This document shows, in pieces, positions 4,875 through 53,390 of a stretch of 53,489 nucleotides of DNA (positions are counted from its first letter, which is position 1; each line of letters begins with the position of its first letter). The stretch spans positions 1 to 53,489 of the forward strand of contig NZ_QLIX01000028.1 in NCBI RefSeq assembly GCF_003258945.1, written 5' to 3'. The position numbers and the translations under genes are program-made. The notes below the pieces were generated by a model that had not been told where the DNA came from, ran no database searches, and was given only the letters and a program-made list of their open reading frames with translations. Source of the stretch: Roseicella frigidaeris (GTDB lineage: Bacteria; Pseudomonadota; Alphaproteobacteria; Acetobacterales; Acetobacteraceae).

Positions 4875-5197
4875 GGCGCGGCCGACCGGTCCTGGAGCAG
4901 ATCCCGATCGGATGAGTCCACCAGAACGGCATCCCGGCGACGACGTCGACCTCGCCGTGCAATGCGAGACGTGGGGCTGCGCCTGGCCGCCTTGCCCGCC
5001 GACGCGAGGGCGGTGCCACGGCTACCACGCGGACCCTGACCCCGCGGGCGTCCGCCGAACAGGCCCAACACGTTCGACGAGTTGCGTCGCCCCCGGGCGG
5101 GCGTAGGGGGCAGGACCGCCGCTCAGTGATACCGGACCTATGCAGCCGGCCGAAGGGCCGCGGTCGGGTGGCCGGTGCGGGTCATGCCCAGCCGGGA
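4875..5197 (+). other. Gene-free interval after the ABC operon
   Basis: This 323-base interval separates the ABC operon from the converging acyltransferase gene. It begins with a truncated copy of the dispersed repeat (4892-4925). The rest is GC-rich, with no frame showing family similarity and no convincing terminator hairpin. I see nothing else in it. Confidence 0.5.
4892..4925 (+). repeat. Truncated copy of dispersed hairpin repeat family 1
   Basis: It starts CTGGAGCAGATCCCGATCGG, identical over 20 bases to the copy at 7601 and close to those at 26728, 47403 (reverse) and 53287. After about 30 bases similarity is lost, so the right arm of hairpin A and all of hairpin B are missing. Confidence 0.7.
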
Positions 5198-6358
5198 CTA
5201 TTGCTGCCAGGCGAGTTGCGTCTCGCGCCGGTGCCGGCCTGGCCCGCCTTCGCCCAGCACCCAGGCGGCACGACGGCGCATGATCCAGGCGAAGATGATC
5301 GGCAGGGTGAGGCCGAAGACGAGATTCAGCGGCACCATCCAGATGCTGGCCCGCAAGACCGCCTCGGGGCGATGCGTCGCCGCGGCGACGAGGGTGGTGA
5401 TGCCGCCGAAGACCAGCACATGCAGCGGGAAGATGACACGGCTTTCGAGCGACAGCGCGCGCAGCGAGCGGCTCGCCGGCAGGAGAACCGACACCCCGAT
5501 GAGGCCGGCCGTGCCGAGCGCGGCGCCGAGCAGGTAGAGCAGCGGGTCGCCGAAGCGCATCGCGTTGATGTTGACGAAGCCGTTCACCCCGGCGATGGCG
5601 GCGGTGAGCAGCAACCCGGACAGCGACAGGAATGCCAGGACCAAGCGGCCAACGGGCGTCCGTTGGGCGGACAGCAGCGTGCGGCGCGGGCCGAACAGGA
5701 GGCCGGCGAGGAAGAACATCGAGGCGACCGCGGCGCTGTCGGCGCTCCAGGGCAGCCGGACGGGCAGGGGCCCCATGACGATCATGGCACAGGCCAGGAG
5801 CGTCGCCAGCGCCAGGGCCCAGACGCGGCCCACCAATCGCATCAGGAGCAGCGAGCTGCAGGCGGTGAGGAAGAGCGCCGGGAAGAACCAGAGCACGCTG
5901 TTGGCGGGAATCCAGTCGGCAACGCCATAGGCGATGCCGCCCGCCATGTGCAGCAGGCTCCGCCACTGCGGCAGTCCGCCATGATGCAGCAACGCCGCCG
6001 CCTGCACATAGGCGAGCGTCAACAAGCCGAAGAAGGCGAAGGGGATCAGCAGGCTGTGGGCGAAGCGATGCAGCTGTCGCGGCCAGGGTTCGCCCGAGGC
6101 GGCGAGGGCGGTCACCCCGGCCAGGAAGAAGAAGAGCGGCATGTGGAAAGCGTAGAGGACGTCACGTGCATAGCCGGGAGAGAGCGCATGTCCCAGCACC
6201 ACGAGGACGATGCCCATGCCCCGCGCATTGTCGAGCCAAGCGATCCGCTCCGCTGATGCCCTGTGGCGCGAGCCCGTCCGTTCGCCCGACCAGGCCGGGT
6301 CAGCGGTGTTCGGTGCGGCACGTGAGCTGCGAAGGGTGGCGCTCTCGGACTCTGCCAT
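5198..6358 (-). CDS. Acyltransferase 3 family membrane protein
   Basis: This is a 386-residue integral membrane protein of the OafA/NodX acyltransferase-3 family. After a polar N-terminal tail of about 38 residues comes the family signature: RIAWLDNARGMGIVLVVLGH with the conserved histidine at residue 57, then the AFHMPLFFFLAG helix. About ten hydrophobic helices follow. Members move acetyl or other acyl groups from the cytoplasm onto surface sugars, so this enzyme probably modifies a lipopolysaccharide, capsule or exported glycan; the acceptor is unknown. It stands alone, converging on the ABC operon. The sugar cassette at 9.2-12.2 kb could supply a substrate, but it is a separate transcription unit. 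An alternative start at MGIVL would delete the signature, so the long form is kept. Confidence 0.85.
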   Translation of the reverse strand: MAESESATLRSSRAAPNTADPAWSGERTGSRHRASAERIAWLDNARGMGIVLVVLGHALSPGYARDVLYAFHMPLFFFLAGVTALAASGEPWPRQLHRFAHSLLIPFAFFGLLTLAYVQAAALLHHGGLPQWRSLLHMAGGIAYGVADWIPANSVLWFFPALFLTACSSLLLMRLVGRVWALALATLLACAMIVMGPLPVRLPWSADSAAVASMFFLAGLLFGPRRTLLSAQRTPVGRLVLAFLSLSGLLLTAAIAGVNGFVNINAMRFGDPLLYLLGAALGTAGLIGVSVLLPASRSLRALSLESRVIFPLHVLVFGGITTLVAAATHRPEAVLRASIWMVPLNLVFGLTLPIIFAWIMRRRAAWVLGEGGPGRHRRETQLAWQQ

Positions 6359-6951
6359 TCAGTCAACTCCGGGACGATGCAGTGATCACAGGGAACGAGT
6401 GATGCTCTGATGCGGGCTCTTTCGATGCAGCAGTGCAGCGACCGCGCGATGTGAGCGAACGACACGCTCGATCAGCGCGGTTTGAATGCGCAAGAGATGC
6501 CAGACCATATCACGGAGTCAATCACAGGCAGCGAGCACGGCGAAAGGCAGCAGTGGAGTGGCACGCAGACAAGACGCGTCGTCGCTGTGCTGGCCACCAG
6601 CTTTGCGGATGCCGCGTGGCGCCAGGAACGATCGCGACACGGCACGCCGCGACATCGGACGGAGTGCAGGGCATCGTCGATGGCAATGCCGTGCTGGGAT
6701 CGGCAGCGAAGTGTGCAGAATGTCCTAATGCAGTATTGCAGCCATGACAGCGGAGATGCAGCGTGGCGTTTGCCTGCACAGGCTTCGGCTTGCACGATCG
6801 GGGCAATGATGCTTTATGGGGTCGCAGGATGTTCTGACGGACATCTCGTCGATCTGGGCGTGCGTGTCCGGTTGCGCTTTTCGACTAGGATTGCGGCCTC
6901 GTTCGCGCGGCCGATCATCGTGATTCATGCGTGCTGGGGAGGTGTCTCGCG
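6359..6951 (+). other. Lower-GC gene-free interval
   Basis: This is about 590 bases between the divergent acyltransferase and RlpA genes. By eye the base composition is clearly less GC-rich than the flanks. Several short frames exist on both strands, but none shows a recognisable domain or a convincing start. A motif of the form ATGCAG-N3-TGCAGC appears at about 6425 and 6724. The promoters of both flanking genes must lie here. A regulatory RNA or decayed foreign DNA is possible. Confidence 0.45.
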
Positions 6952-7527
6952 TTGAACGGTCTCAATTCGGGCGCTGCACTGCGTCGTTCTGCACGCTTCA
7001 TGGCGAGCAATGCGGCAAAGTCGTGGCACGGCCGAGTCGTGACGCGCGGGATCATGCTTGGCCTGACCTCGCTGGCAGCGGCCTGTGCGCAGCAGGCTCC
7101 GATGCCGGATGCCGCCCTCATCGTGTCGAACATCGCCACCTCGCAGCCCGTGGCGGAGATGCAGCGCGAGGTTGAGCCGCAACCGGTCGTCGCACGGTCG
7201 CCGGCCATGCGTCCCGTCGGCAGGCCGCAACTCGGTAAGGCGTCCTATTACGGCCCGGAATTCACGGGCCGCACCATGGCCAATGGCAGGCGCTTCGATC
7301 CAGGCTCCACCAGTGTTGCGCATCGCACATTGCCCCTCGGCACGAAGGTGCTTGTCAGGAACCTGGACAATGGCCGGGTGACGACGGCGACGGTCGAGGA
7401 TCGCGGCCCCTTCATCCAGGGGCGGATCATCGATGTCAGCCCGCGGCTCGCGGAACGCCTCGGGATGCTGCGGGTGGGGGTGGTGCCGGTCGAGGTGCTG
7501 CCCGTCGAGGTGGCAGAGGCGCCGTAG
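6952..7527 (+). CDS. RlpA-like lipoprotein (double-psi beta-barrel)
   Basis: This is about 191 residues. The C-terminal half is a double-psi beta-barrel of the RlpA type: GKASYYGPEFTGRTMANG, then AHRTLPLGTKVLVRN and VEDRGPF...GRIIDVSP. RlpA proteins are septal or polar lytic transglycosylases or cell-wall binders. There is no C-terminal SPOR domain, so this is a short form. The segment LGLTSLAAAC is a lipobox, suggesting an outer-membrane lipoprotein processed at the cysteine codon at 7084. The start is uncertain: a TTG at 6952 has a good GGGGAGG site upstream, while ATG 7000 or GTG 7039 would give a more normal signal-peptide length. It is monocistronic and followed by a repeat. Confidence 0.82.
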   Translation: MNGLNSGAALRRSARFMASNAAKSWHGRVVTRGIMLGLTSLAAACAQQAPMPDAALIVSNIATSQPVAEMQREVEPQPVVARSPAMRPVGRPQLGKASYYGPEFTGRTMANGRRFDPGSTSVAHRTLPLGTKVLVRNLDNGRVTTATVEDRGPFIQGRIIDVSPRLAERLGMLRVGVVPVEVLPVEVAEAP

Positions 7528-7984
7528 CGGCACCCTGTCCGGTCGGGCAACCAGTCGGGGCGATGACTGTCGGGCCCGGATGGGGCGGTATGCCTTCCGG
7601 CTGGAGCAGATCCCGATCGGGTGGACGCACCTGATCGGCTGAAGATGCTCTGAAAGCAGGAGCCTAGGGCGTCGAGCCGGGGATAGGGGCTTTATCGCCT
7701 GCCCATGACGGCGGGGCCCTGCTTGGCAGCGGGGGACTTCCCCGCCCATCGAGGGCCATTAATCAAATGGCCACTCTTTGAAGTGCAGAATTCCTGTAAT
7801 TCGCGTTTGGTATTCCTGGCATGGCCAGAGGCCGCCAGGCCGGCCGTGCTGTGGTGGCAGCGCGCAATTATGGGTATCTCGCCGAATGGGTGGCGGCAGC
7901 CCAGGCAGGGGGAAAGCAGGGTGCGATGGGGGGAAAGGACGGCCTCGAGGTGGGCCCGGCCGGCGCGCAGCGCCAGGCCCAGGC
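7528..7984 (+). other. Gene-free interval with a repeat copy and small AT-rich hairpins
   Basis: This 457-base interval holds a repeat copy at 7601-7670. At 7754-7815 there is a locally AT-rich patch with a small stem (GGCCATT / AATGGCC, 7754-7772) and the inverted pair GAATT / AATTC. This patch is the best candidate for the promoter of the downstream small gene. No coding region is convincing. Confidence 0.4.
7601..7670 (+). repeat. Dispersed hairpin repeat family 1, copy 2
   Basis: It begins CTGGAGCAGATCCCGATCGG, forms hairpin A (CCGATCGGGTG / CACCTGATCGG), then has the linker GAAGATGCTCTGAAAGCAGG and a decayed hairpin B. It is nearly identical to the reverse copy at 47300-47403 across hairpin A and the linker. 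Confidence 0.85.
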
Positions 7985-8374
7985 ATGACGCCGCTCCCGC
8001 CTGACCGGATGGCCGGCATGCCCCTTCAGAACGCGCTGGACCTCTCGCGGGAGCCGGCCTTGCACAGCTTCATCACCGGCATCGGTGAGCGCGCCAGCCT
8101 CGATGAGCTGGCACGGTTGCGCATCGGCACGGCCCTGCGCCTCCGCCGGGCGTCGAAGCCGATCCGCGGCTGCGCGGTCGAGATCCGGTCTCCGGCCGGC
8201 AGCCCGCTGGGATGGCTGCCCCGGGAGGATGAGGCGGCGCTCGAAGCGCTGGGGATCGACCCCGACACGGCAACGGTCCGGGTGGCCGCCATCGTTCCCG
8301 CCTTCCAGCGGCCGCGGGTGCGCATCCAGATCCTCCTGCCCGATCCGGTCGCCGAGGTCGCGCCCGCGGCCTGA
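7985..8374 (+). CDS. Small HIRAN-like domain protein
   Basis: This is about 129 residues. The core reads LRIGTALRLRRASKP, then a polar 'CAVEIRSPAGSPLGWLPRED' segment and 'IDPDTATVRVAAIVP', ending in a beta-rich tail. This resembles the stand-alone HIRAN domain, in which a beta-barrel with a GxLPR(E) segment binds DNA ends or damaged DNA in SNF2 helicases such as HLTF. Stand-alone copies occur in many bacteria with unknown roles. The match is by pattern only, so the family call is moderate. The start is uncertain: ATG at 7985, 8009 and 8018 are all in frame and none has a strong ribosome site. Confidence 0.55.
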   Translation: MTPLPPDRMAGMPLQNALDLSREPALHSFITGIGERASLDELARLRIGTALRLRRASKPIRGCAVEIRSPAGSPLGWLPREDEAALEALGIDPDTATVRVAAIVPAFQRPRVRIQILLPDPVAEVAPAA

Positions 8375-8493
8375 TCCCCGGCGGGCCGGGGGCGACCATC
8401 CCTTGGGCGATAGGGCGCCCGGCCGGTCCCGACCCGGCTGTGCCCGGCCAGGCCGCCGCGCTATCAGGGCCTCTCCATGGCGTGAGGAGAGGG

Positions 8494-8865
8494 ATGATGG
8501 CGATCCGGCGGCTGGCCGAGGAGGAGCGGCTCTCCGGGGCGGTGGTGCAGGGCGGCCTTGTCTGGCTGGCCGGCCAGGTGGCCGAGGATCCCAGCCTCGA
8601 CGCGGAAGGCCAGACCGCCGACATCCTGGCCCAGATCGATGCGCTGCTCGCCGCGGCGGGGAGCTCGAAGCGGAACCTTCTCAGCGTCACCATCGTGCTG
8701 GCCGATATCGCCGATGCTGCGGCCATGAACCGTGCCTGGGATCGCTGGCTGGACCCGGCCGCCAAGCCCGCCCGCATGACCATCGAGGCGGCGCTGGTCG
8801 ATCCCCGCTGGAAGGTCGAGATCACCGGCGTCGCCGCCCTCGGCGCCGGGGCGGCCGTGGCCTGA
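8494..8865 (+). CDS. RidA family protein (reactive imine/enamine deaminase type)
   Basis: This 123-residue protein matches the RidA/YjgF/UK114 family in length and layout: a short N-terminal strand, VWLAGQVAED, the helix QTADILAQIDALLAAAGSSK, the strand LLSVTIVLADIAD, and the C-terminal ARMTIEAALVDPRWKVEI. The arginine of ARMTIEA aligns with the catalytic Arg105 of canonical RidA, so deaminase activity on 2-aminoacrylate-like intermediates is plausible. Two ATGs are adjacent (8494, 8497), behind a GAGGAGAG ribosome site. It is monocistronic. The substrate cannot be assigned because RidA subfamilies vary. Confidence 0.85.
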   Translation: MMAIRRLAEEERLSGAVVQGGLVWLAGQVAEDPSLDAEGQTADILAQIDALLAAAGSSKRNLLSVTIVLADIADAAAMNRAWDRWLDPAAKPARMTIEAALVDPRWKVEITGVAALGAGAAVA

Positions 8866-9177
8866 CAATGCCGCCGGGGGCGGGGAGGGGGGCCGAGAGG
8901 CCGCCCGCTCGCCGCGGCGCGGCCGCGGGCTCGCCAGCCCTGCCCCGAAGGGCTACAGCGGCAGCCCGCGTGTCTCGGCGACGACCTGGTCATTTGGCCG
9001 GCCTGCGAGGCAGGCAGGAGCCCTGCTGCCTGCGGGGCCGGCCCGCACCAGCCCCGGGATGATCGCGCCGCCCCGCCATCGCCGGCGCGCGGGCTAGCTT
9101 CCGCCGCAATTCGCGGCGATCACTGATGCAGGACTGGGCAATGGCTGCGCCCCGGCCCGCAGGAGGATGCAGGATCG
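8866..9177 (+). other. Gene-free interval with an inverted repeat
   Basis: This is 312 bases of very GC-rich sequence. At 8996-9043 outer GGCCGGCC arms enclose an imperfect GCAGGCAGG / CCTGCTGCCTGC pair, which could terminate ridA transcription although no T-run follows. A good ribosome site (AGGAGG, about 9161-9166) lies before the epimerase gene. I see nothing else. Confidence 0.4.
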
Positions 9178-10179
9178 ATGACCGACGCGGAACGGGCCGC
9201 CTTCTGGCGCGGCAAGCGCGTCCTGGTGACGGGCGGGGCCGGCTTCCTCGGCAGCGCCCTTTGCCACGGCCTGGCGAGGCTCGGGGCCCGGGTCACCGCC
9301 ATCGATGCGATGATGGAGGAGGGCGGCGCCAACATCGCCAATCTCGAGGGCGCCTCGGTTCTCCTGGTGCGCGGCGACATCCGCGACGTCGAGCTGCACT
9401 CGCTCTGCCAGGATGTCGACGTCCTGTTCAACATGGCGGCGCAGACCAGCCATATGGGCGGCCAGCGCGATCCGGTCGCGGATATCGCGATCAACGCGGT
9501 GGCACAGGTCCGCCTCATCCAGGTGCTGCGCGAGGCGGCGCCGCGCGCGACGGTGGTGCATGCCTCGACCCGGCAGTTCTACGGCCGGCCGCTCCGCCTG
9601 CCGGTGGACGAGCTGCATCCGGTGCAGCCGCCGGATGCCAACGGCGTCTCGAAATTCGCCGGCGAGCAGTATTGGCTGCTGGAGCAGCGCGTGCACGGCC
9701 GGCCGGTGGTCGCCTTGCGGCTGACCAATTGTTACGGCCCGCGGCTGCGGATCCGCGACGCCAAGCAGACCTTCCTCGGCATCTGGCTGCGCCGGGTGCT
9801 GGAGGGCGAGACCTTCGAGGTTTGGGGCGGCGAGCAGCTGCGCGACCTGACCTATGTCGACGACGTGGTCCAGGCCTTCCTGCTGGCCGCCGAGGTGGCG
9901 CCCCGGCCGGAGGCGGCCGGCCGGGTCTTCAACCTCGGCGGCTCCGCCCCCGCCTCCCTCATCGAACTCGCCGAGCGACTCATTGCGGCGAATGGCGGCG
10001 AGGGGCAGTATGTGGTGAAGAGCTTCCCGGCCGATCGTGCACCCATCGACATCGGCAGCTACCATGCCGATGACCGGGCCTTTCGCGCCGCCACGGGCTG
10101 GACGCCGAGGGTGGGCCTCGACGAGGGCCTGGCGCGGTCGCTGGAATGGTACCGCGCGCGGCTGGCCGATTACACCTGA
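9178..10179 (+). CDS. NAD-dependent nucleotide-sugar epimerase/dehydratase (SDR)
   Basis: This is a 333-residue extended short-chain dehydrogenase. The Rossmann motif GGAGFLG lies at about residues 20-26, with the acidic ribose-binding residue in AIDAMM. The active-site strand reads HASTRQFYGRP. The usual YxxxK is NGVSK: the lysine is kept but the tyrosine is asparagine. The block LRLTNCYGPRLRIRDAKQTF, then LRDLTYVDDVV, is typical of UDP-glucose 4-epimerase-like enzymes. It probably interconverts or oxidises a nucleotide sugar, feeding the aminotransferase 18 bases downstream, with which it should be co-transcribed. The ribosome site AGGAGG lies upstream of the start. Confidence 0.85.
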   Translation: MTDAERAAFWRGKRVLVTGGAGFLGSALCHGLARLGARVTAIDAMMEEGGANIANLEGASVLLVRGDIRDVELHSLCQDVDVLFNMAAQTSHMGGQRDPVADIAINAVAQVRLIQVLREAAPRATVVHASTRQFYGRPLRLPVDELHPVQPPDANGVSKFAGEQYWLLEQRVHGRPVVALRLTNCYGPRLRIRDAKQTFLGIWLRRVLEGETFEVWGGEQLRDLTYVDDVVQAFLLAAEVAPRPEAAGRVFNLGGSAPASLIELAERLIAANGGEGQYVVKSFPADRAPIDIGSYHADDRAFRAATGWTPRVGLDEGLARSLEWYRARLADYT

Positions 10180-11337: not shown

Positions 11338-11377
11338 GCCGGCCGCGCGGCGGGGCAGGGGGCGGAGGCCTGGCGCG

Positions 11378-11475
11378 CGATCGCCGGAGGTGGCCTCACC
11401 GAAGGCGTGAATCACGCGACCAGACAATGCGCTGGAGCATGATCCGCGAACCGGAGTGAGCGGATCATGCTCCAG
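11378..11475 (+). repeat. Dispersed hairpin repeat family 1, copy 3 (leader plus perfect hairpin)
   Basis: A leader resembling the 17428 and 53229 copies (GAGGTGGCCTCACCGAAGGC, then ATCACGCGACCAGACAA) runs into a perfect 16-base inverted repeat, CTGGAGCATGATCCGC (11432-11447) and GCGGATCATGCTCCAG (11460-11475), with a 12-base loop. It lies between two converging genes and may also act as a bidirectional terminator. Confidence 0.88.
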
Positions 11476-11479
11476 CCGC

Positions 11480-16317: not shown

Positions 16318-17442
16318 ATGACGGCTCTGCTCTTCACGCCCACGCGGCTGCGCGACCTGACCCTCGCCAACCGCATCGTGGTCTCGCCCATGGCGCAGTA
16401 TTCCGCCGATGCCGAGGGGCGGGCGACGCCGTGGCACCTGATGCATCTCGGCACCCTCGCCGTCTCCGGCGCCGGGCTCGTCATCATGGAGGCGACGGCG
16501 GTCGAGCCGCGCGGGCGCGTCTCGCCGCGCTGCCTCGGCCTCTGGACCGAGGCCCAGGCCGAAGCCCTGCGGCCGGTGCTCGCCTTCTGCCGCGAGCATG
16601 GCGACGCGGCGCTCGGCATCCAGCTCGCCCATGCCGGGCGCAAGGGCTCGGTCGGGCGGCCCTGGGAGGGCAACGAGACCGTGCCGGAGGGGGCAGGGGG
16701 CTGGCAGCCCGTCTCCTCCTGCGACCTCGCCTATCCCGGACGGCCGGTGCCGCATGCGCTGACCATCGAGGAGATGGCGGCGATCAAGGCGGATTTCGTC
16801 GCGGCGACGCGACGCGCGGCCGAGCTCGGCTTCGATCTCGTCGAGCTGCATGCGGCGCATGGCTACCTGCTGAACAGCTTCCTCTCGCCGCTCGCCAATC
16901 GCCGGACCGATGCCTATGGCGGCGACCGCGCCGGGCGGATGCGCTGGCCGCTCGAGATCCTGGCGGCGATGCGGCAGGCCTGGCCGGCCGAGCGGCCGCT
17001 CGGGGTGCGAATCTCGGCGACGGATTGGGTCGAGGGCGGCTGGACGCCGGAGGACAGCGCCGTCTTCGCGGCGGAGGCGCGGGCGCAGGGCTGCGACTAC
17101 GTCACCGCCTCCTCGGGCGGCGTCAGCCCGGAGCAGCGCATCGCCCTCGGGCCTGGCTACCAGCTCCCCCTGGCGCGGCGCATCCGGGAGGCGACCGGCA
17201 TCCCGACCATGGCGGTCGGGCTGCTGCACGATCCGCAGCTGGCCGAACGGGCGTTGCAGGCGGGCGATGCCGACCTCATCGCCCTCGGCCGCGGCATGCT
17301 GTGGGAGCCGCGCTGGGCCTGGCACGCGGCCGATGCGCTCGGCGCCGCCGCGCCCTTCCCGCCGCAATACGCCCGCAGCCATCCTTCGATGCGCTTCGGC
17401 GATCCCGGCCGGCCGTTCCTGGAGCGTAATCGCCTGAGGTAG
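16318..17442 (+). CDS. Old Yellow Enzyme family NADH:flavin oxidoreductase
   Basis: This 374-residue FMN TIM barrel is closest in pattern to YqjM/xenobiotic-reductase types: LTLANRIVVSPMAQYSAD, LGIQLAHAGRKGS, DLVELHAAHGYLLNSFLSP, LGVRISATDWVEGGW and the phosphate-binding DLIALGRGMLWEPRW. Such enzymes reduce activated C=C bonds or nitro groups with NAD(P)H. The ribosome site GGGGAGG lies upstream of the ATG. The last residues (about NRLR and the TAG stop) lie inside the leader of a dispersed repeat beginning near 17428, so the native C-terminus seems to have been replaced by repeat sequence. No operon partner is visible. Confidence 0.87.
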   Translation: MTALLFTPTRLRDLTLANRIVVSPMAQYSADAEGRATPWHLMHLGTLAVSGAGLVIMEATAVEPRGRVSPRCLGLWTEAQAEALRPVLAFCREHGDAALGIQLAHAGRKGSVGRPWEGNETVPEGAGGWQPVSSCDLAYPGRPVPHALTIEEMAAIKADFVAATRRAAELGFDLVELHAAHGYLLNSFLSPLANRRTDAYGGDRAGRMRWPLEILAAMRQAWPAERPLGVRISATDWVEGGWTPEDSAVFAAEARAQGCDYVTASSGGVSPEQRIALGPGYQLPLARRIREATGIPTMAVGLLHDPQLAERALQAGDADLIALGRGMLWEPRWAWHAADALGAAAPFPPQYARSHPSMRFGDPGRPFLERNRLR

Positions 17443-17524
17443 AATTACCGAAGGCGCGAATCACGCGACCGAACGCCGCGCTGGACCATGGTCCGCGAAC
17501 CGGCGTGAGCGGATCGTGGTCTGG
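17428..17524 (+). repeat. Dispersed hairpin repeat family 1, copy 4
   Basis: The leader (AATCGCCTGAGGTAG, then ATTACCGAAGGCGCGAATCA) overlaps the last codons and stop of the upstream gene. The hairpin is CTGGACCATGGTCCGC (17481-17496) against GCGGATCGTGGTCTGG (17509-17524), with the same GAACCGG-GTGA loop as copy 3. Four stem positions are G-T pairs rather than Watson-Crick, so the stem would still form as RNA. Confidence 0.85.
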
Positions 17525-25927: not shown

Positions 25928-26731
25928 GTGCCGCGCGACCCGGACGATACCATCGACGACAAGCCGATGCCGCTGCTCGACCACCTGATGGAGCTGCGCA
26001 CGCGGCTCCTCTGGTCGGTCGGCGCCTTCGCCATCGCCTTCGCCGTCTGCTACTACTTCTCGGCGCAGATCTACGGCTTCCTCGCCAAGCCGCTCGCCGA
26101 TATCCTGCAGCACCAGGGCGGCGGCGACCGGCGGATGATCTTCACCGCCCTCTACGAGGCCTTCTTCACCTATCTGAAGGTGGCCTTCTTCGGCGCCGTC
26201 TTCTTCAGCTTCCCGGTCTGGGCGACGCAGCTCTGGCTCTTCGTCGCGCCCGGTCTCTACCGGTCCGAGAAGCGTGCGATCTATCCCTTCCTGATCGCCT
26301 CGCCCTTCCTCTTCGTGCTCGGCGCGGCGCTCGCCTACTACTTCATCTTCCCGCTCGCCTGGCGCTTCTTCATCACCTTCGAGACGCCGCCGGGCGAGGG
26401 CACGCTGCCGATCCAGCTCGAGGCCAAGGTCAGCGAATACCTCTCGCTGGTCATGCAGATGATCCTCGCCTTCGGCGTCGCCTTCCAGTTGCCGGTGCTG
26501 CTGACGCTGCTCTGCCGCGTCGGCATCCTGGACGTGGCGACGCTGAAGAAGGGGCGGCGCTATGCCATCGTCGGCATGTTCGTCGTGGCGGCGGTGCTGA
26601 CGCCGCCCGACGTGATCAGCCAGATCGGCCTCGCCGTGCCGCTGCTCGGCCTGTACGAGATCTCGATCCTGGCGGCGACCTGGATGGCGCAGCCGAAGAA
26701 GACGCCGGACGGCGGCAGCAGTAGCAGCTAG
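25928..26731 (+). CDS. tatC: Sec-independent translocase protein TatC
   Basis: This 267-residue protein has six membrane helices. The cytoplasmic N-terminus contains MPLLDHLMELRTRLLWSVG, the signal-peptide-binding region of TatC. Other conserved parts are YEAFFTYLKVAFFGA, FPVWATQLWLFVAPGL and the first periplasmic cap. It forms the receptor for folded twin-arginine substrates; msrP at 48.5 kb has such a signal. Translation starts at GTG 8 bases after tatB. The TAG stop lies in the first bases of a dispersed repeat, so the tail GGSSSS probably ends differently from its ancestor. Confidence 0.94.
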   Translation: MPRDPDDTIDDKPMPLLDHLMELRTRLLWSVGAFAIAFAVCYYFSAQIYGFLAKPLADILQHQGGGDRRMIFTALYEAFFTYLKVAFFGAVFFSFPVWATQLWLFVAPGLYRSEKRAIYPFLIASPFLFVLGAALAYYFIFPLAWRFFITFETPPGEGTLPIQLEAKVSEYLSLVMQMILAFGVAFQLPVLLTLLCRVGILDVATLKKGRRYAIVGMFVVAAVLTPPDVISQIGLAVPLLGLYEISILAATWMAQPKKTPDGGSSSS

Positions 26732-26835
26732 AGCAGATCCCGTTGGGGTGGACGCACCTGACCGGGTGAGGATGCTCGTAAAAACAACTACCTAGAGCAT
26801 TGCAGGTGAACGGAAGTTCGCAGGACATGCTCTAG
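26728..26835 (+). repeat. Dispersed hairpin repeat family 1, copy 5 (full two-hairpin form)
   Basis: Hairpin A is CCCGTTGGGGTG against CACCTGACCGGG with loop GACG; some pairs are G-T. The linker is GATGCTCGTAAAAACAACTA. Hairpin B (26792-26835) has outer arms CTAGAGCAT / ATGCTCTAG and inner arms GTGAAC / GTTCGC around GGAA. It is closely matched by the copy at 53285-53390. Its first bases (CTAG) contain the tatC stop codon. Confidence 0.9.
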
Positions 26836-39251: not shown

Positions 39252-39788
39252 ATGCTGCGACGACATCTCGCCGGCTTCGCGCTGCTCGGCGCGCCGGCCC
39301 TCATCCGCCCCGCGCGTGCCGCGGAGGAGCGCCTGGTCCTCGATCTGAAGGACGGCCCGGTCATCATCCAGCTCCTGCCCGATGTGGCGCCGCGGCATGT
39401 GGAGCGCATCAAGACCCTGGCGGGCCGCGGCTTCTACGACGGCACGCCCTTCCACCGGGTGATCGAGGGCTTCATGGCCCAGGGCGGCGATCCCACCGGC
39501 ACTGGCACGGGCGGCAGCGACCTGCCCAACCTGCCGGCGGAGTTCACCGACAAGTATCGCTTCCTCCGCGGCGTCTGCGGCATGGCCCGCACCTCGGATC
39601 CGAACAGCGCCAACAGCCAGTTCTTCATCATGTTCGGCCCGGCGCCGAACCTCGACCGGCAATACACCGTTTGGGGCCGCGTGGTCTCCGGCATGGAGGC
39701 GGTCGACAAGATCAAGCGCGGCACCGGGGCCGGCGGGGTGGTGCAGAACCCCGACAAGCTGCTCCGGGCCCGCGTCGCCGCCGCCTGA
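39252..39788 (+). CDS. Peptidyl-prolyl isomerase, cyclophilin type, exported
   Basis: This 178-residue protein has a signal peptide (MLRRHLAGFALLGAPALIRPARA) followed by a cyclophilin domain. Active-site segments are RGFYDGTPFHRVIEGFMAQG, GGDPTGTGTGGSDLPNL, GVCGMARTSDPNSANSQFFI and GRVVSGMEAVDKI. The Arg of FHRV, the Gln of FMAQG and the Phe of SQFFI are the catalytic positions. The conventional tryptophan for cyclosporin binding is absent. It catalyses proline isomerisation in the periplasm. A second cyclophilin without a signal peptide follows 26 bases later; the two look like a tandem duplication. Confidence 0.9.
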   Translation: MLRRHLAGFALLGAPALIRPARAAEERLVLDLKDGPVIIQLLPDVAPRHVERIKTLAGRGFYDGTPFHRVIEGFMAQGGDPTGTGTGGSDLPNLPAEFTDKYRFLRGVCGMARTSDPNSANSQFFIMFGPAPNLDRQYTVWGRVVSGMEAVDKIKRGTGAGGVVQNPDKLLRARVAAA

Positions 39789-39814
39789 TCCGCCCCAGAA
39801 TCAAGGACTTCCTC

Positions 39815-40483
39815 ATGAGCGATGAAACCGGCAGCCCCGAGAAGATCCCCGGCGAGCCCCCAATCGGCGAGACGCCAGCCAGCGAGACGCCAGCCAGCGA
39901 GACATCGGCAAGCGAGACGCCAGCGAGCGAGGCTGCGGTGAGCGAGGAGGCGCCGGCGGCTGCAGCCGCCGAGCCCGATCCGAAGCTCGAGAACACGCTG
40001 ATCCTTGAGCTGAAGGACGGCGCGGTGACGATCGAGCTGCTGCCCGAGCTGGCGCCGCAGCATGTCGAGCGCATCAAGACCCTGGCGCGCGCCGGCTTCT
40101 ACGACAACACGCCCTTCCACCGGGTGATCGAGGGCTTCATGGCCCAGGGCGGCGACCCGACGGGCACCGGCACCGGCGGCGCCCGCGAGCAGGGCTATGC
40201 CGACCTGCCGGCCGAGTTCTCGCCGCCGAACCGGGCGCGCTTCGTGCGCGGCACCTGCGGCATGGCGCGGACCATGAACCCGCACAGCGCGAACAGCCAG
40301 TTCTTCATCATGTTCGCCTCGGCGCCGAGCCTCGACGGGCAGTACACCATCTGGGGCCGTGTGGTCGCCGGCATGGAGATCGTCGACAAGATCAAGCGCG
40401 GCACCGGCAACAACGGCATCGTCCAGGGGCCGGACCGGCTGGTGAAGGCCCGCGTCGCCGCCGACGCGCCGGCGGCCGCCTGA
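39815..40483 (+). CDS. Peptidyl-prolyl isomerase, cyclophilin type, cytoplasmic
   Basis: This 222-residue protein has an acidic N-terminal tail of about 55 residues built on ETPAS repeats, then a cyclophilin domain almost parallel to the preceding gene: GFYDNTPFHRVIEGFMAQGG, TCGMARTMNPHSANSQFFIM and WGRVVAGMEIVDKI. It has no signal peptide, so it should work in the cytoplasm. The two genes share the string FHRVIEGFMAQGGDPTGTGT. The first segment of the tail is encoded by a 15-base tandem repeat. Confidence 0.9.
   Translation: MSDETGSPEKIPGEPPIGETPASETPASETSASETPASEAAVSEEAPAAAAAEPDPKLENTLILELKDGAVTIELLPELAPQHVERIKTLARAGFYDNTPFHRVIEGFMAQGGDPTGTGTGGAREQGYADLPAEFSPPNRARFVRGTCGMARTMNPHSANSQFFIMFASAPSLDGQYTIWGRVVAGMEIVDKIKRGTGNNGIVQGPDRLVKARVAADAPAAA
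39869..39943 (+). repeat. 15-base tandem repeat, five units
   Basis: Five units of 15 bases based on GAGACGCCAGCCAGC encode ETPAS, ETPAS, ETSAS, ETPAS and EAAVS within the cyclophilin tail. The first two units are identical and later units are diverging. Unit length is a multiple of three, so copy-number changes would keep the frame. Confidence 0.85.
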
Positions 40484-42336: not shown

Positions 42337-42491
42337 CACCTGCCGGGGCGCCGCCCAGTGGCGGCGCCCGCCCTATGACGCGCCGGCCGCCGGAGGGCCG
42401 GGCCGCGCGGTCGTTCCGGCATGGCATTTTCAGGCTATCCTCCCCGGCCAGGTCTGTGCACCTGATCAGAAACGGCTCGAAGGAGATTTGC

Positions 42492-47222: not shown

Positions 47223-47299
47223 CCGGACCGGCTCCCGCCGCCCGCGGGATGCGGGCCTGGCGCGGTGCAGCGCAACCGGCGTGCCAGGATGGGCGGCCA

Positions 47300-47403
47300 G
47301 GGCGCTTCCCGTGAACGCCGGTTCACGGGAAGCGCCCCAGGCTCCTGTTTTCAGAACATCTTCGCCCGATCAGGTGAGGCCACCTGATCGGGATCTGCTC
47401 CAG
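47300..47403 (-). repeat. Dispersed hairpin repeat family 1, copy 6 (reverse)
   Basis: Read on the minus strand: CTGGAGCAGATCCCGATCAG, hairpin A with perfect arms CCCGATCAGGTG / CACCTGATCGGG, linker GAAGATGTTCTGAAAACAGG, then hairpin B with perfect 16-17-base arms (GGCGCTTCCCGTGAAC, 47301-47316, and GTTCACGGGAAGCGCC, 47321-47336). Hairpin A and linker match copy 2; hairpin B is a different sequence from the 26.8 and 53.3 kb copies. Confidence 0.9.
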
Positions 47404-48294: not shown

Positions 48295-48322
48295 ATGATA
48301 GTGCGCCGCGTTTAGGATACAA
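48295..48322 (-). promoter_or_regulatory. Predicted promoter of the atypical regulator
   Basis: On the minus strand TTGTAT (48322-48317) and TATCAT (48300-48295) are separated by 16 bases, a plausible sigma-70 pair in an AT-rich patch between the divergent regulator and msrP genes. TACAAT on the plus strand (48318-48323) overlaps it and could be the -10 of msrP. No experimental support. Confidence 0.35.
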
Positions 48323-48457
48323 TCATAAAGTGCACAGAAGCCGGGGATGATTGCCACAGGTAACCCGCCGGCCCCTCTCGGCGAAGCAGCCTGGACGCCC
48401 GCCCCCATGCCGGACCCGCCCCGATCCGGCCCCGGTCGGGCGCCACGGAGGCCTGCG

Positions 48458-49393
48458 ATGCTGATTCGAATCCCGCGCGGCTGGGAGCTGCCCGAGCGCG
48501 CCGCCACGCCCGAACCGCTCGTGTTCGGCCGTCGGGCGGCGCTGCAGGCCGCGGCAGGCCTCGCCGTTGCCGGCCTGGCCGGGCCGGCGGCGGCGCAGGA
48601 GATCGGCGGCGCCGCGCGCAATCCCCGCTATCTTCCGGGACGTGACATCACGGCCGAGAAGGACGCGACGACCTACAACAACTACTACGAGTTCGGCACC
48701 GACAAGGGCGTCTACCGCTCGGCCCAGAAGCTGCCGCTGCGCCCCTGGGTGGTGAAGATCGACGGCCTCGTCAGCCAGCCGCGCGACTACGGCCTCGACG
48801 ACCTGCTGCGCGCCATGCCGATCGAGGAGCGAGTCTACCGACTCCGCTGCGTCGAGGCCTGGTCGATGGTGGTGCCCTGGACCGGCTTCCCGCTGGCGGC
48901 GCTGCTCAAGGCGGCGGGACCGAAGCCTGAGGCGCGCTATGTCCGCTTCGAGAGCGCGGCGCTGCCGGCCGTCATGCCCGGGCTGCGCCAGTCCTGGTAT
49001 CCCTGGCCCTATGTCGAGGGCTGCACCCTGGAGGAGGCGGCGAACGACCTCTCCTTCCTCGTCGTCGGTGCCTATGGCAAGCCGCTGCCGCCGCAGAATG
49101 GCGGCCCGCTCCGCATCCACCAGCCCTGGAAATACGGCTTCAAGGGCGGCAAGTCGCTGGTGCGGATCAGCCTGGTCGCCGAGCGGCCGACATCCTTCTG
49201 GGAGGCGATCCAGCCCTCCGAATACGGCTTCTGGGCCAATGTGAACCCCGAGGTGCCGCATCCGCGCTGGAGCCAGGCGAGCGAGCGGGTGCTCGGCACC
49301 GGCGAGCGGATCCCGACCCAGCTCTTCAACGGCTATGGCGAGTTCGTCGCTGGCCTCTATGCCGGGTTGCAGAAGGAACGCCTCTGGACCTGA
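48458..49393 (+). CDS. msrP: Protein-methionine-sulfoxide reductase catalytic subunit MsrP
   Basis: This 311-residue molybdoenzyme (YedY family) repairs oxidised methionines in periplasmic proteins. A Tat-type signal is present (VFGRRAALQAAAGLAVAGLA). The mature part has TTYNNYYEFGTDKG, the molybdenum-ligating cysteine in YRLRCVEAWSMVVPW, GFPLAALLKAAGP, the YPWPYVEGCTLEEA segment and KSLVRISLVAERPTSFWE. The upstream frame reaches 48347, but ATG 48458 has an ACGGAGG ribosome site. The usual heme partner MsrQ is not downstream; gltX converges instead. Confidence 0.92.
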   Translation: MLIRIPRGWELPERAATPEPLVFGRRAALQAAAGLAVAGLAGPAAAQEIGGAARNPRYLPGRDITAEKDATTYNNYYEFGTDKGVYRSAQKLPLRPWVVKIDGLVSQPRDYGLDDLLRAMPIEERVYRLRCVEAWSMVVPWTGFPLAALLKAAGPKPEARYVRFESAALPAVMPGLRQSWYPWPYVEGCTLEEAANDLSFLVVGAYGKPLPPQNGGPLRIHQPWKYGFKGGKSLVRISLVAERPTSFWEAIQPSEYGFWANVNPEVPHPRWSQASERVLGTGERIPTQLFNGYGEFVAGLYAGLQKERLWT

Positions 49394-49428
49394 GCCCGCC
49401 CTCCCCGGCCGGGGAGGGCGCGCGCCGC

Positions 49429-50826
49429 TCAGCCCTCGGCCGCGGCCAGGATGCGGTCCATCGCCTCGGTGCGGCCGAGCGCCCAGAGCACGGCGTCGAT
49501 CGGCGGGCTCTGCGTGCTGCCGGTGAGCGCCACCCGCAGCGGCTGCGCCACCTGGCCGAGCTTCAGCCCCTTCACCTCGGCATAGTCGCGCAGCCAGCTC
49601 TCGAGATCGGCCCGCTCCCACGGGGCATCGGTCAGGAACTGCGCGAGATCGGCGAGGCGGGCCTTGGCCTCCGGCGTCAGCAGCGCCGCCGCCTTCGCCT
49701 CCAGCGGCGGCGGGCCCTCGATCACCGCGAAGGCGGCCGAGGCGGCCAGCTCCTCCAGCGTCTTCGCCCGCTCCTTCAACACCGGCATCAGCGCCCGCAC
49801 CCGGTCGGCGCCCAGGGTCCCGAAGGAGACCACGTGCCGGCCCAGCCGCTCCAGGACGTCGCGGGTCAGGCGGTCGTCGTCGCTGCCCCGGAGATAGACG
49901 CCGTTCAGGTGCAGCAGCTTGGCGTAATCCATGCGCGAGGCGGCCCGGCCGACGCCATCGAGGTCGAACAGGGCGATGGCGCGCTCGCGCGGGATCACCT
50001 CCTCGTCGCCATGCCCCCAGCCGAGCCGCATCAGGTAATTGCAGACCGCCTCGGGCAGGAAGCCCTGCTCGCGGAACTCGAGCGCCCCGACCGCGCCGTG
50101 CCGCTTCGACAGCTTCGCCCCGTCCGCGCCATGGATCAGCGGAATATGGGCGAAGCGCGGGCGGCTCCAGCCCATGGCGTCGTAGACCATGCATTGCCGG
50201 AAGGTGTTGGTCAGGTGGTCGTCGCCGCGGATGACATGGGTGATCGCCATGTCGTGGTCGTCGACCACCACCGCGTGCAGGTAGGTCGGCGTGCCGTCCG
50301 AACGCAGGATGATCATGTCGTCCAGCTCGCCATTGGCGACGCGGACCGTGCCCTGCACCAGGTCCTCGACCACGGTCTCGCCCTCGCGCGGCGCCTTGAT
50401 GCGGATGGCGGGCGCGACCGAGGGGGCGTCCTTCGGATCGAGCCCCTGCCAGCGGCTGCCGTCGTATTTGAAGGGGCGCTTCGCCGCCTCGGCCGCCTCC
50501 CGCTGCGCCGCCAGCTCTTCCGGCGTGTCGTAGGCGAGATAGGCGCTGCCGCGCGCGAGCAGCGCGCGGGCCACCTCGGCATGCCGCGTCTCGCGCGAGG
50601 CCTGGAAGACCGGCGGCTCGTCGGGCGAGAGGCCGAGCCAGGCGAGGCTGTCGAGGATCTGCTGCACCGCCTCGGGCGTGCTGCGCTGCCGGTCGGTGTC
50701 CTCGATGCGCAGCAGGTAGGTGCCGCCATGGTGGCGCGCGAAGAGATAGTTGAAGAGCGCGGTGCGCGCCCCGCCGATATGCAGAAAGCCGGTGGGCGAG
50801 GGGGCGAAGCGAGTGCGGACGGACAT
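49429..50826 (-). CDS. gltX: Glutamyl-tRNA synthetase
   Basis: This 465-residue class I synthetase charges tRNA-Glu. It has the HIGH-type motif RFAPSPTGFLHIGGARTALFN, LLRIEDTDRQRST, the specificity region DDHDMAITHVIRGDDHLTNT, and the KMSKS-type KLSKRHGA, followed by the helical anticodon-binding domain to ILAAAEG. The zinc-cysteine site common in some family members is replaced by AYLAYDTPEE. Many Alphaproteobacteria have a second GltX paralogue, and this copy could be either. The ATG at 50826 starts directly with SVRTRFAPS; an upstream in-frame ATG lacks support. Confidence 0.95.
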   Translation of the reverse strand: MSVRTRFAPSPTGFLHIGGARTALFNYLFARHHGGTYLLRIEDTDRQRSTPEAVQQILDSLAWLGLSPDEPPVFQASRETRHAEVARALLARGSAYLAYDTPEELAAQREAAEAAKRPFKYDGSRWQGLDPKDAPSVAPAIRIKAPREGETVVEDLVQGTVRVANGELDDMIILRSDGTPTYLHAVVVDDHDMAITHVIRGDDHLTNTFRQCMVYDAMGWSRPRFAHIPLIHGADGAKLSKRHGAVGALEFREQGFLPEAVCNYLMRLGWGHGDEEVIPRERAIALFDLDGVGRAASRMDYAKLLHLNGVYLRGSDDDRLTRDVLERLGRHVVSFGTLGADRVRALMPVLKERAKTLEELAASAAFAVIEGPPPLEAKAAALLTPEAKARLADLAQFLTDAPWERADLESWLRDYAEVKGLKLGQVAQPLRVALTGSTQSPPIDAVLWALGRTEAMDRILAAAEG

Positions 50827-51063
50827 GGCGTGATTCCCAGGCTGCCTGGCGTCGGCGTGCCAGGTTGGGGGGTGGATCACGGCCCGGCCTCCGGTTCAAG
50901 GCCGAAGGCCGCGATGCCGCCCGCGACCCGGCGCGGGTCTTGGCTGCGCGGCGCCCGGCGAGTCGGGCGGAGCTGCCACGCTTCGTCAATGGAAGGATGG
51001 ACTTGATTTTCGGAAATCCCTTTTAAGTTGAAATTCCCGAGTCGCCGGCGCTAAGCGACCGGG

Positions 51064-53223
51064 GTGTCCCTGTCCCTGACCCGATCCGGTGCCGCGCCCG
51101 GTGGCCCCCCGGCCATGGTCGTGGCCTTGCTCGGGCGGCTCCTCGCCGCCGAACGGGGACGGCTGCCGCCCTGGCTCGCCGTGGCGATGGGTGGCGGGGT
51201 GCTGCTCTATTTCAGCCTGCCGGCGGAGCCGCCGCTGGCCCTCGCCGGTCTCGCCCCGCCGTTGCTCGCCCTCGCCGTCTGGACCGCGGCGCGCGGGCCG
51301 GTGCTCGGCTGGCTGCTCGGCCTGCCGGCGGCGGCGGCGCTCGGCTTCGCCGCCGCCGCCTGGAGCGCCGCCGGGCAGCCGCCGATGCCCGACCTGCCGC
51401 ACGGGGCGGTCGAGGTCGTGGGGCGCATCGCCGCCGTGGAACTGCTGCCGGAGGGACGGCGGCTGACGCTGGAGGCGGCGCGCCTCGGCGGCGAGGCGCC
51501 GCTGCACCGCCAGCTCCGTCTCCGTCTGCGGGCCGAGGACCCGGCACGCCCGGTCCCGGGCGACGGCATCCGGGTGCGCGCCCTGTTGCGGCCGCCAGCG
51601 CCGCCCGCCTATCCCGGCGCCTGGGATTTCCAGCGCGCCGCCTGGTTCTCCGGCCTCGCCGGCAGCGGCTTCGCCATCGGCCCGGCCGAGATCGAGCCGG
51701 CTGCGAGCGGCACGCCGGGGCTCGCCGGGCTGCGGTCCGGGATGGAGGCCCGCGTCACCGCGGCCTTGCCGGGCGCCGCCGGCGCGGTCGCCGCCGCGCT
51801 GCTGACGGGGGGGCAGAGCGCCATCCCAGCCGCGGACCTGGCGGCGATGCGCGACAGCGGGCTGGCGCATCTGCTGAGCGTCTCGGGCCTGCACATCGCG
51901 ATCGTGATGGGGCTTGCCTTCGGCGTGCTGCGGTTCCTCCTCGCCCTCATCCCCGCCCTGGCGCTGCGTCTGCCGGGCAAGGCGATGGCGGCGGTCGGCG
52001 CGCTGGCGGTGGGTGGCCTCTACCTGCTGCTGACCGGAGCGGCGGTGCCGATGCAGCGCAGCTTCGCCATGGCGGCGCTGGCGACGCTGGCGATCCTCAC
52101 CGGCCGCCGGGCCCTTAGCCTGCGCGCCTGGGCCCTGGCCGCCGCCGCGGTGCTGCTGGCGCAGCCGGCGGCGCTGCTCGGGGCGAGCTTCCAGATGAGC
52201 TTCGCCGCGGTGCTGGCCCTGATCGCCGGCTGGGAATGGCTGCGGCCCCGGCTGCCGAAGCCGGGCGCCGGCCGCGCCGCCTGGGGGCGGCGGCTGGCCC
52301 TGGCTGGCTTCGGGGTCGTCGCCACCTCGCTGCTGGCCGGGGCGGCGACCACGCCCTTCGGCCTGCACCATTTCGGGCGGCTGCAGCTCTATGGCGTCGT
52401 CGCCAATGCGGTCGCGGTGCCCCTGACCTCGGTTCTGGTGATGCCGGCCGGCATGGTGGCCGCGGCGCTCATGCCCTTCGGCCTCGATGGCCCGGCGCTG
52501 CGGGTGATGGGCTGGGGGGTGGAGGCGATCCTCGCCGTCGCCCATGCCGTCGCCGCCTGGCCGGGGGCCGCCCTGCCGGCGGTGCCGATCCCGGCCTGGG
52601 GGCTCGGCGCCTGCGCCTTCGGCCTGCTCTGGCTCTGCCTCTGGCAGGCCTCCTGGCGGCTGCTCGGCCTGCCGCTGCTGATCCTCGGCTTGGCCAGCGC
52701 GGCCTGGCAGCGGCCGCCGGATATCCTGGTCTCGGCCGATGCCCGGCTGATCGCCTTCCGCATGCCGGAGGGGCTGGCCCTGCAGCGCCTCTCCGGCGCC
52801 TCGGCGCTGACGCGCGAGAGCTGGCTCCGGCTGTTCGGCTTGGCGGCCGCGCTGCCGCTGCCGAAGCAGGGCGCGCTGGGCGAGGGGATGCTGGAATGCC
52901 AGCCGGAGCATTGTCGCTACCGGGGCCTCTACCGGGGGGCCGGCCCCGCGCCGGCCGCCATCCTGCTGCGCGGCGGTGCCGCAGCGGAGGCCTGCGCCGG
53001 CGCCGCGCTGGTGGTCTCGGCCGAGCCGGTGCGCGGCCGCTGCGCGGCGCAGCGGATCGATCGCTTCGCGGTGTGGCGGAACGGCGCCCATGCGATCTGG
53101 CTGGGCCTGGACGGGGTGAGGGTGGTGAGCGACCGGGCCGCCCGGGGCGACCGGCCCTGGGTGCCGCCGCCGCCGGTGCCGCGCGGCGTCCCGTCCCAGG
53201 ATCCGCCGGCGCCGGCGGATTAG
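51064..53223 (+). CDS. comEC: ComEC/Rec2 family DNA-uptake channel protein
   Basis: This 719-residue membrane protein begins with a short hydrophobic region and DUF4131 (OB-like; about 110-205). The competence domain with about nine helices follows; it contains LAHLLSVSGLHIAIVMGLAF (about 275-294) and GGLYLLLTGAAVPMQRSFAM. The C-terminal part (about 555-719) is soluble and cysteine-containing but lacks the zinc ligands of the metallo-beta-lactamase domain found in long ComEC. This short type is normal for Alphaproteobacteria. It could pass single-stranded DNA across the inner membrane during transformation. GTG start; divergent from gltX with an AT-rich patch between (about 50990-51045). Confidence 0.86.
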   Translation: MSLSLTRSGAAPGGPPAMVVALLGRLLAAERGRLPPWLAVAMGGGVLLYFSLPAEPPLALAGLAPPLLALAVWTAARGPVLGWLLGLPAAAALGFAAAAWSAAGQPPMPDLPHGAVEVVGRIAAVELLPEGRRLTLEAARLGGEAPLHRQLRLRLRAEDPARPVPGDGIRVRALLRPPAPPAYPGAWDFQRAAWFSGLAGSGFAIGPAEIEPAASGTPGLAGLRSGMEARVTAALPGAAGAVAAALLTGGQSAIPAADLAAMRDSGLAHLLSVSGLHIAIVMGLAFGVLRFLLALIPALALRLPGKAMAAVGALAVGGLYLLLTGAAVPMQRSFAMAALATLAILTGRRALSLRAWALAAAAVLLAQPAALLGASFQMSFAAVLALIAGWEWLRPRLPKPGAGRAAWGRRLALAGFGVVATSLLAGAATTPFGLHHFGRLQLYGVVANAVAVPLTSVLVMPAGMVAAALMPFGLDGPALRVMGWGVEAILAVAHAVAAWPGAALPAVPIPAWGLGACAFGLLWLCLWQASWRLLGLPLLILGLASAAWQRPPDILVSADARLIAFRMPEGLALQRLSGASALTRESWLRLFGLAAALPLPKQGALGEGMLECQPEHCRYRGLYRGAGPAPAAILLRGGAAAEACAGAALVVSAEPVRGRCAAQRIDRFAVWRNGAHAIWLGLDGVRVVSDRAARGDRPWVPPPPVPRGVPSQDPPAPAD

Positions 53224-53228
53224 AGCCT

Positions 53229-53390
53229 GATCGCTCGAGGTGGGCTCATCGAAAAGCGTGACTCACGCGATCAGACAACGGCCTGGAGCAGATCCTGTCC
53301 GGATGAACTCATCCGGACAGGTGAAGATGCTCCTAAAAATAAATACCTAGAGCATTGCAGGCGAACGGAAGTTCGCAGGAAATGCTCTAG
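53229..53390 (+). repeat. Dispersed hairpin repeat family 1, copy 7 (leader plus two hairpins)
   Basis: This is the most complete copy. The leader (GATCGCTCGAGGTGGGCTCA, then GACTCACGCGATCAGACAA) resembles copies 3 and 4. Hairpin A has perfect 13-base arms CCTGTCCGGATGA / TCATCCGGACAGG. The linker is GATGCTCCTAAAAATAAATA. Hairpin B (53347-53390) has arms CTAGAGCATT / AATGCTCTAG and inner GCGAAC / GTTCGC. It starts 6 bases after the comEC stop and ends where the insertion sequence begins. Confidence 0.92.

What the first reader, a model, noticed from the sequence alone, without database searches (positions are those of the whole stretch)
4892..53390. Dispersed mosaic repeat with leader, hairpin A, linker and hairpin B modules
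Seven copies sit between genes (4892, 7601, 11378, 17428, 26728, 47300 reverse, 53229). Modules mix: a leader occurs in copies at 11378, 17428 and 53229; hairpin A with its GATGCTC linker occurs at 7601, 26728, 47300 and 53285; hairpin B has a CTAGAGCAT version (26792, 53347) and an unrelated GGCGCTTCCC version (47300). Copy 11378 has another hairpin, CTGGAGCATGATCCGC and its complement. Palindromes ending GATCATGCTC are familiar from other Alphaproteobacteria, but this modular arrangement looks unlike simple REP units. It may be mobilised by a transposase elsewhere or act in transcript ends.
Basis: partly seen in the sequence, partly recalled or inferred. Interest (0 to 1): 0.7.

Follow-up and report, generated by a model that had tools for sequence, protein, structure and literature searches.

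The report
Two-hairpin mobile repeats at stop codons
The repeats are copies of a small, gene-less mobile DNA unit made of two hairpins that inserts at the rare sequence CTAG, often in the stop codon of a gene so that the gene still ends correctly; it resembles a repeat family described in Caulobacter, and its ends suggest which kind of transposase may move it.

Summary
The seven copies are real and belong to a genome-wide family: 26 clusters in a 400-kb grid sample, so roughly 380 in this 5.8-Mb genome (genus of Roseicella sp. DB1501). The unit is 105-108 bp: a 5' hairpin (A1, A2 or L), a linker, a 3' hairpin (B, Bp or C), CTAG at both ends. It was never found inside genes. 49 of 89 distinct clusters abut a gene stop; 49 of the 52 stops are TAG. 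At 14 orthologous sites in the relative none holds a full unit; at the cleanest one a single CTAG stands where this genome has CTAG-unit-CTAG. One unit is nested inside another. Element-bearing genomes lack RAYT (Y1) transposases. IS630 elements also sit at CTAG/TA, and the commonest unit ends share 10-12 of their 14 terminal bases (14 of 14 for one copy in another genome). The A stem shows strong compensatory change, and a model of it finds relatives in other families of the class. Size, two arms, TA ends and partly a GANTC loop fit published CIR repeats, whose mobility was called unresolved. Verdict: a CIR-type, MITE-like unit; that IS630 (Tc1/mariner) transposases move it is inferred.

The parts
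4892..4929 (+). truncated A2 arm
   Evidence: model positions 1-38
7601..7658 (+). A2 arm with linker; a CTAGGGCG remnant of a Bp arm follows at 7664
11372..11474 (+). L-C unit between convergent genes
17420..17522 (+). L-C unit; the upstream gene (16318-17442) ends at a TAG inside the L arm
26728..26835 (+). A-B unit with CTAG at both ends; absent at the orthologous place in G003
26728..26731 (+). CTAG that is both the unit's left end and the TAG stop of the tatC gene (25928-26731)
47299..47403 (-). A2-Bp unit
53221..53390 (+). L arm followed by an A1-B unit (53283-53390)
53221..53223 (+). TAG at the left end of the L arm, stop codon of a competence-family (PF03772) gene, 51115-53223
42427..42478 (-). 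degenerate A2-like arm (weak)

Best explanation
The repeat is a non-autonomous, MITE-like mobile unit of the CIR type: two hairpin arms joined by a linker, with TA (usually CTAG) at both ends. Shown: copies are absent from orthologous places in a close relative; the cleanest empty site has one CTAG where the filled site has CTAG-unit-CTAG; units lie beside and inside one another, mostly sharing a CTAG; none was found inside a gene; many overlap the CTAG of a TAG stop. Inferred: an IS630-family (Tc1/mariner) transposase encoded elsewhere recognises the ends and moves the unit by cut-and-paste into C^TA^G. Because CTAG is rare here and in-gene insertions would be lost, surviving insertions gather at stop codons, in 3' regions and in the CTAGs that the units themselves bring, which makes the mosaics. 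That arms are exchanged among families by nested insertion and recombination is also inferred.
For: Insertion polymorphism: 15 element-bearing loci tested in G003; both flanks found, in whole or part, at 14; none holds a full unit; at 9 of 14 the interval is 66 nt or less. L087: a single CTAG in G003; L008: the right-hand CTAG is in G003 and G004. Nested unit in L009; 31 of 48 distinct between-unit junctions overlap by 2-4 nt. CTAG 91 observed, 443 expected; 25 of the 91 in elements; 8 of 18 CTAG stops carry one. 49 of 89 distinct clusters abut a stop, 49 of 52 such stops TAG, 37 overlapping by four bases. IS630 copies between TA/CTAG. Commonest own unit ends against 13 IS630 ends over 14 nt: A2 12 (p 0.0009), A1 11 (0.006), L 12 (0.0015), C 11 (0.005), Bp 11 (0.014), B 10 (0.046); G001 B end 14 of 14, G003 B end 12.
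Against: The matching tips are short and no IS with a longer match to a unit was found. IS5 ends match some unit ends too (own B 10 of 14, p 0.028; L 10, p 0.036; G003 B end 11, p 0.003; G001 B end 11, p 0.008). The Bp copy tried first gave only 9 of 14 against IS630 (p 0.21). The best L and C matches are to an IS630 of G002, not of this genome. G020 has units but no IS630 match at E 1e-10; G002 and G004 have IS630 but gave no A1-B match. An exact CTAG in the relative was seen at only two loci (L087, L008); L025, L030 and L034 show CTAA, CTAT and TTAG, L020 none. The compensatory changes and nearly invariant internal loop of arm A and the solo arms are not predicted by a plain DDE transposition model.
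Confidence: 0.6

Rival explanations
1. The same mobile unit, but moved by IS5-family (IS427-like) transposases, which in these genomes also sit between CTAGs.
For: IS5-family copies with CTAG on both sides: own C1 (L208, directly at the CTAG of an A1 arm) and G020 (L199, L210). An IS end at contig ends reads CTAG-AGCGTGTTACGG, close to the L end CTAG-AGCGTGATCGC. G020 has IS5 and units but no IS630 match.
Against: Beyond TAGAGC the ends agree less than with IS630: commonest own ends 8-10 of 14 against IS5, 10-12 against IS630. Fewer IS5 ends (7) than IS630 ends (13) were compared, though the shuffles allow for that.
Confidence: 0.15
2. The hairpins are kept by selection as RNA at transcript ends (termination, 3'-end protection or processing), and mobility is secondary.
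For: Strong compensatory change in arm A; gene-end position; low-energy folds of four of five units tested.
Against: No significant orientation bias relative to the adjoining gene (32 same, 20 opposite, p 0.13); absence from 14 orthologous gene ends in the relative; A and B-type arms lack an adjacent T run in the scanned stretches; no Rfam match. The L-C unit at 17424 folds only weakly (z -2.0).
Confidence: 0.1
3. A folded single strand is what an unknown recombinase (not Y1) recognises, and single arms or whole units move between CTAGs.
For: Compensatory change and a nearly invariant asymmetric loop in arm A; single arms and several 5' arms in a row.
Against: No candidate enzyme; end similarity to IS630 would be unexplained; single arms could be remnants of larger units.
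Confidence: 0.1
4. REP/REPIN system moved by a RAYT (Y1) transposase.
For: Short intergenic palindromes with a tetranucleotide at the foot.
Against: No PF01797 match in seven of eight genomes, including the six with element matches; foot is CTAG, not the GTAG recalled for REPs; the two arms of a unit differ in sequence.
Confidence: 0.02

Closest known systems
CIR elements (Caulobacter CcrM-associated intergenic repeats; Chen and Shapiro 2003, not held; described in Delihas 2007, PMC2229807, passages read)
   Same: about 110 bp; two inverted-repeat arms joined by a linker; GANTC at the terminal loop of one arm in part of the copies; TA at the ends; intergenic; several kinds in one genome
   Different: here target duplication, empty sites, CTAG/stop-codon position and IS630-like ends are documented; the young A1 arm lacks GANTC; roughly 380 clusters estimated; letter-level homology to CIR1-CIR4 not tested
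RUP of Streptococcus pneumoniae with IS630-Spn1 (passages in PMC2229807, and PMC3049150)
   Same: 107 bp, no gene, TA target, ends like those of a resident IS630
   Different: RUP is described as one stem-loop, not two arms with a linker; no relation of sequence tested
BOX elements of Streptococcus (passages in PMC3049150)
   Same: modular, with modules in varying order and number, and insertion of repeats into one another
   Different: other module structure and host; no relation of sequence tested
RIME1 of Rhizobium (Osteras 1995; not held; size and two palindromes recalled)
   Same: recalled as about 108 bp with two large palindromes, mosaic, intergenic
   Different: sequence not seen, so relation unknown
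Bru-RS palindromic repeats with IS711 (passages in PMC2266754)
   Same: palindromic repeats reported as preferred insertion places of an IS with target YTAR; here too IS copies abut unit CTAGs
   Different: sequence not compared; the IS is a visitor, not shown to move the repeat

Membership tests
CIR | about 110 bp, two inverted-repeat arms joined by a linker | tested here: met
   105-108 bp units; two-arm folds (the L-C unit at 17424 only weakly)
CIR | GANTC at the terminal loop of one arm | tested here: inconclusive
   33 of 91 distinct A sequences from own and related genomes; A1 copies lack it; 16 of 23 class loci have a GANTC somewhere in the arm
CIR | intergenic, TA at the termini | tested here: met
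   0 of 89 distinct clusters inside genes by midpoint; TAG found at the end of 15-34 of 17-48 copies per arm type, e.g. A1 26 of 29, A2 29 of 48, B 15 of 21, Bp 34 of 42, L 20 of 43, C 17 of 40; the rest carry variants such as CTGG or CCAG
CIR | sequence homology to CIR1-CIR4 | not testable with these tools
   the 2003 paper is not held
IS630-type MITE (as RUP) | insertion with target TA (CTAG) duplicated | tested here: met
   L087 and L008 empty sites; exact at few loci
IS630-type MITE (as RUP) | ends like those of a resident IS630 | tested here: inconclusive
   10-12 of 14 for commonest own ends, 14 of 14 for one G001 copy; short, and IS5 matches some ends as well
IS630-type MITE (as RUP) | moved in trans by the IS630 transposase | not testable with these tools
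   needs a transposition assay
REP/REPIN-RAYT | RAYT (Y1, PF01797) transposase in the genome | tested here: not met
REP/REPIN-RAYT | two inverted copies of one palindrome | tested here: not met
   the arms of a unit differ
intrinsic terminator | GC stem directly followed by a T run | tested here: not met
   A and B-type arms not flagged in the stretches scanned; one weak stem in L at 53268-53256 was; 42427-42478 was not scanned
RIME1 | sequence match to RIME1 | not testable with these tools
   paper not held

The most novel reading that the evidence does not exclude
One superfamily of two-arm hairpin elements, with CIR and perhaps RIME and Bru-RS as members, spreads through Alphaproteobacteria by inserting at CTAG; it uses the TAG stop codon as a safe harbour because the duplicated target rebuilds the stop, and it is recognised partly in folded form, so that single arms as well as whole units can move.
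Probability: 0.2. Interest if true: 0.8.

Novelty: new variant of a known kind. Interest (0 to 1): 0.6.

Why it matters
CIR-type repeats were described in 2003, and the 2007 review whose passages I read says that more information is needed on how they move. This genome supplies empty sites, a target (CTAG), a nested insertion and candidate IS630 partners, so the question becomes directly testable. It also suggests how a small element can load gene ends without breaking genes: its target is rare elsewhere, and the duplicated target keeps the stop codon.

Tried and rejected
RAYT/REP: rejected. Terminators: rejected for the A and B-type arms in the stretches scanned. Rfam: only a tRNA in the window, nothing at E up to 0.1 in six loci. 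IS5 as mobiliser: kept as a rival. The first gene calling was misled by shadow ORFs on the opposite strand and was replaced by a self-trained codon model. A fuzzy regular-expression search timed out. The inverted-repeat search around transposases gave mostly chance pairs; I used only pairs with TA/CTAG flanks, and many IS630 copies gave no clear ends. The end comparison used single copies, for Bp an atypical one; one search repeated it but captured few copies because of a narrow window; one search corrected that. Literature searches listed no paper that by title or abstract start links these repeats to IS630, CTAG or stop codons; I saw listings and, of nine papers, passages, none whole; subscription journals are mostly missing.

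Full report
OBSERVATION. The seven copies are real. The genome G000 (5.82 Mb, 87 contigs; the window is contig C21) holds many more: the 109-bp unit at 53282 has 19 copies of at least 87% identity over 104 nt or more, itself included; L-C gave 46 rows and A2-Bp 90 rows, about 40 near full length each, with 40 of 167 and of 193 candidates scored. A fixed grid of 20 stretches of 20 kb has 26 clusters and the window 8, degenerate ones included; the grid extrapolates to about 380 per genome. The reversed sequences gave no hit at E<0.1.

ANATOMY. A unit is a 5' arm with linker (A1, A2 or L) followed by a 3' arm (B, Bp or C, 42-44 nt). Outer ends read CTAG or a variant such as CTGG. The commonest of 95 clusters in L001-L091 are A2-Bp (19), L-C (15) and A1-B (6); A1-Bp, A2-B, several 5' arms in a row and tandem units also occur. 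L133:6125 is a chimera of L and A2. In L009 an A1-B unit lies inside an L-C unit at the L|C junction; 31 of 48 distinct between-unit junctions overlap by 2-4 nt, that is, neighbours share one CTAG-like word; the other 17 do not. Arm A has an outer stem GAGCA/TGCTC, an asymmetric internal loop with nearly invariant letters, and an inner stem of 12 pairs. Over 42 distinct sequences from six genomes, 94.1% of cells pair (29.6-40.1% when slid by 1-3 columns), and 71 cells carry changes on both sides (26 in shuffles, none of 500 as high); the number of pairs with such changes, 8, was reached by 39 of 500 shuffles. Relatedness inflates the shuffle control. As single-stranded DNA four of five units fold far below shuffles (z -4.4 to -11.9); the L-C unit at 17424 does not (z -2.0).

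TARGET. In 453 kb (grid plus window) CTAG occurs 91 times against 443 expected from trinucleotides; 25 of the 91 lie in elements. 18 of 61 TAG stops are CTAG and 8 of these 18 carry an element. With gene calls from a self-trained codon model (401 genes, stops TGA 312, TAG 61, TAA 13), 0 of 34 clusters have their midpoint in a gene; 11 are convergent, 18 tandem, 2 divergent and 3 at stretch ends, while gaps of 60 nt or more number 22, 137 and 49. In 13 of 34 the TAG of a flanking gene lies at the element's edge. In the larger but hit-selected set (89 distinct clusters) none is inside a gene, 49 abut a stop, 49 of 52 such stops are TAG, 37 of the 52 overlap by four bases, and orientation is not significantly biased (32 same, 20 opposite, p 0.13). 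In the window, tatC (25928-26731) and a competence-family gene (51115-53223) end in the first TAG of an element.

MOBILITY. Fifteen element-bearing loci were tested; both flanks were found, in whole or part, at 14 (not L080). None has a full unit in G003. At 9 of 14 the interval is 66 nt or less; at the other five (L018, L027, L056, L026, L088) 154-942 nt of other sequence lie between, in L027 with one weak partial A2 match (E 0.0067). In L087 G003 has one CTAG where G000 has CTAG-unit-CTAG. At L008 the right-hand CTAG is present in G003 and G004. L025, L030 and L034 have CTAA, CTAT and TTAG in G003; L020 has no CTAG. At the tatC stop G001 carries, by eye, a different two-hairpin unit between CTAGs, with GCTCTGAAAACAACA as linker on one strand (only a weak A2 match, E 0.0035).

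ENZYME. No Y1 transposase was found in the six element-bearing genomes. IS5-family copies between CTAGs exist. IS630-family copies were found in own and related genomes; own C10 is bounded by CTAG on both sides, own C1 by CTAG on one side and TA on the other. Over the terminal 14 nt the commonest own ends match the best of 13 IS630 ends at A2 12 (p 0.0009), A1 11 (0.006), L 12 (0.0015), C 11 (0.005), Bp 11 (0.014), B 10 (0.046); against 7 IS5 ends at 9, 8, 10 (p 0.036), 9, 9 and 10 (p 0.028). Single copies from relatives: G001 B 14 and G003 B 12 against IS630, 11 and 11 against IS5 (p 0.008, 0.003); G015 B 11 and 9. The six own end types share start letters, so these p values are not independent. 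Against the model: G020 has units but no IS630 match at E 1e-10; G002 and G004 have IS630 but no A1-B match at E 1e-5. That IS630 prefers CTAG I take from a title in a reference list.

RELATIVES. An exact A2-linker pattern was found in one species of the GTDB contigs, Roseicella sp. DB1501; that scan may leave out the window's genome. A covariance model of arm A matched 19 of 289 genomes of the class, own included, 20 candidates scored per genome. Of 23 class loci examined, 18 have TA at the left end, 16 contain GANTC and 11 are followed by a stable second hairpin; the weakest, such as L333-L335, look like chance or coding sequence.

COMPARISON. Delihas 2007 (passages) describes CIR repeats of Caulobacter and Brucella: about 110 bp, two arms and a linker, GANTC at a terminal loop, TA at the ends, target duplication marked '?', mechanism of mobility to be ascertained. 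That is the closest match in anatomy. GANTC is at the A loop in 33 of 91 distinct A sequences, and the A1 copies, which spread recently, lack it, so it is not needed for spread. It works like an IS630-mobilised MITE, as proposed for RUP; by anatomy it is a CIR-type unit; letter-level homology to CIR could not be tested.

VERDICT. Real, mobile and recent; the mobiliser is inferred. The stem covariation is what the IS630 model explains least.

Noticed in passing
window 1-89; L178, L179, L180, L186: The window begins in the end of an IS whose reading frame (LAGLHVIAFVSLMLAKATAAFDLVRNTV*) takes its TAG stop from an adjoining CTAG; other contig ends carry an IS end abutting CTAG. That it is IS5-like is my reading, from recall.
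   Followed up: partly
window 53391-53489; L190: After the last element the contig ends in CAGGCTGCTGAAAAACT..., and contig C87 begins with a similar word beside TTAGAGCAGATC; it looks like another IS end at an element's CTAG.
   Followed up: no
L080 right flank; G003 loci L266-L283: A different dispersed repeat of about 100 bp (query 2259-2360) has about 30 matches of 75-83% identity in G003.
   Followed up: no
window 39252-40483: Two neighbouring small genes are duplicates: direct repeats of 226 and 183 nt, 81% and 87% identical, spaced 665-680 nt.
   Followed up: no
own-genome sample, 453 kb: CTAG is depleted to 0.21 of expectation and GTAC to 0.57, while GATC, CATG and AGCT are near 1.
   Followed up: partly
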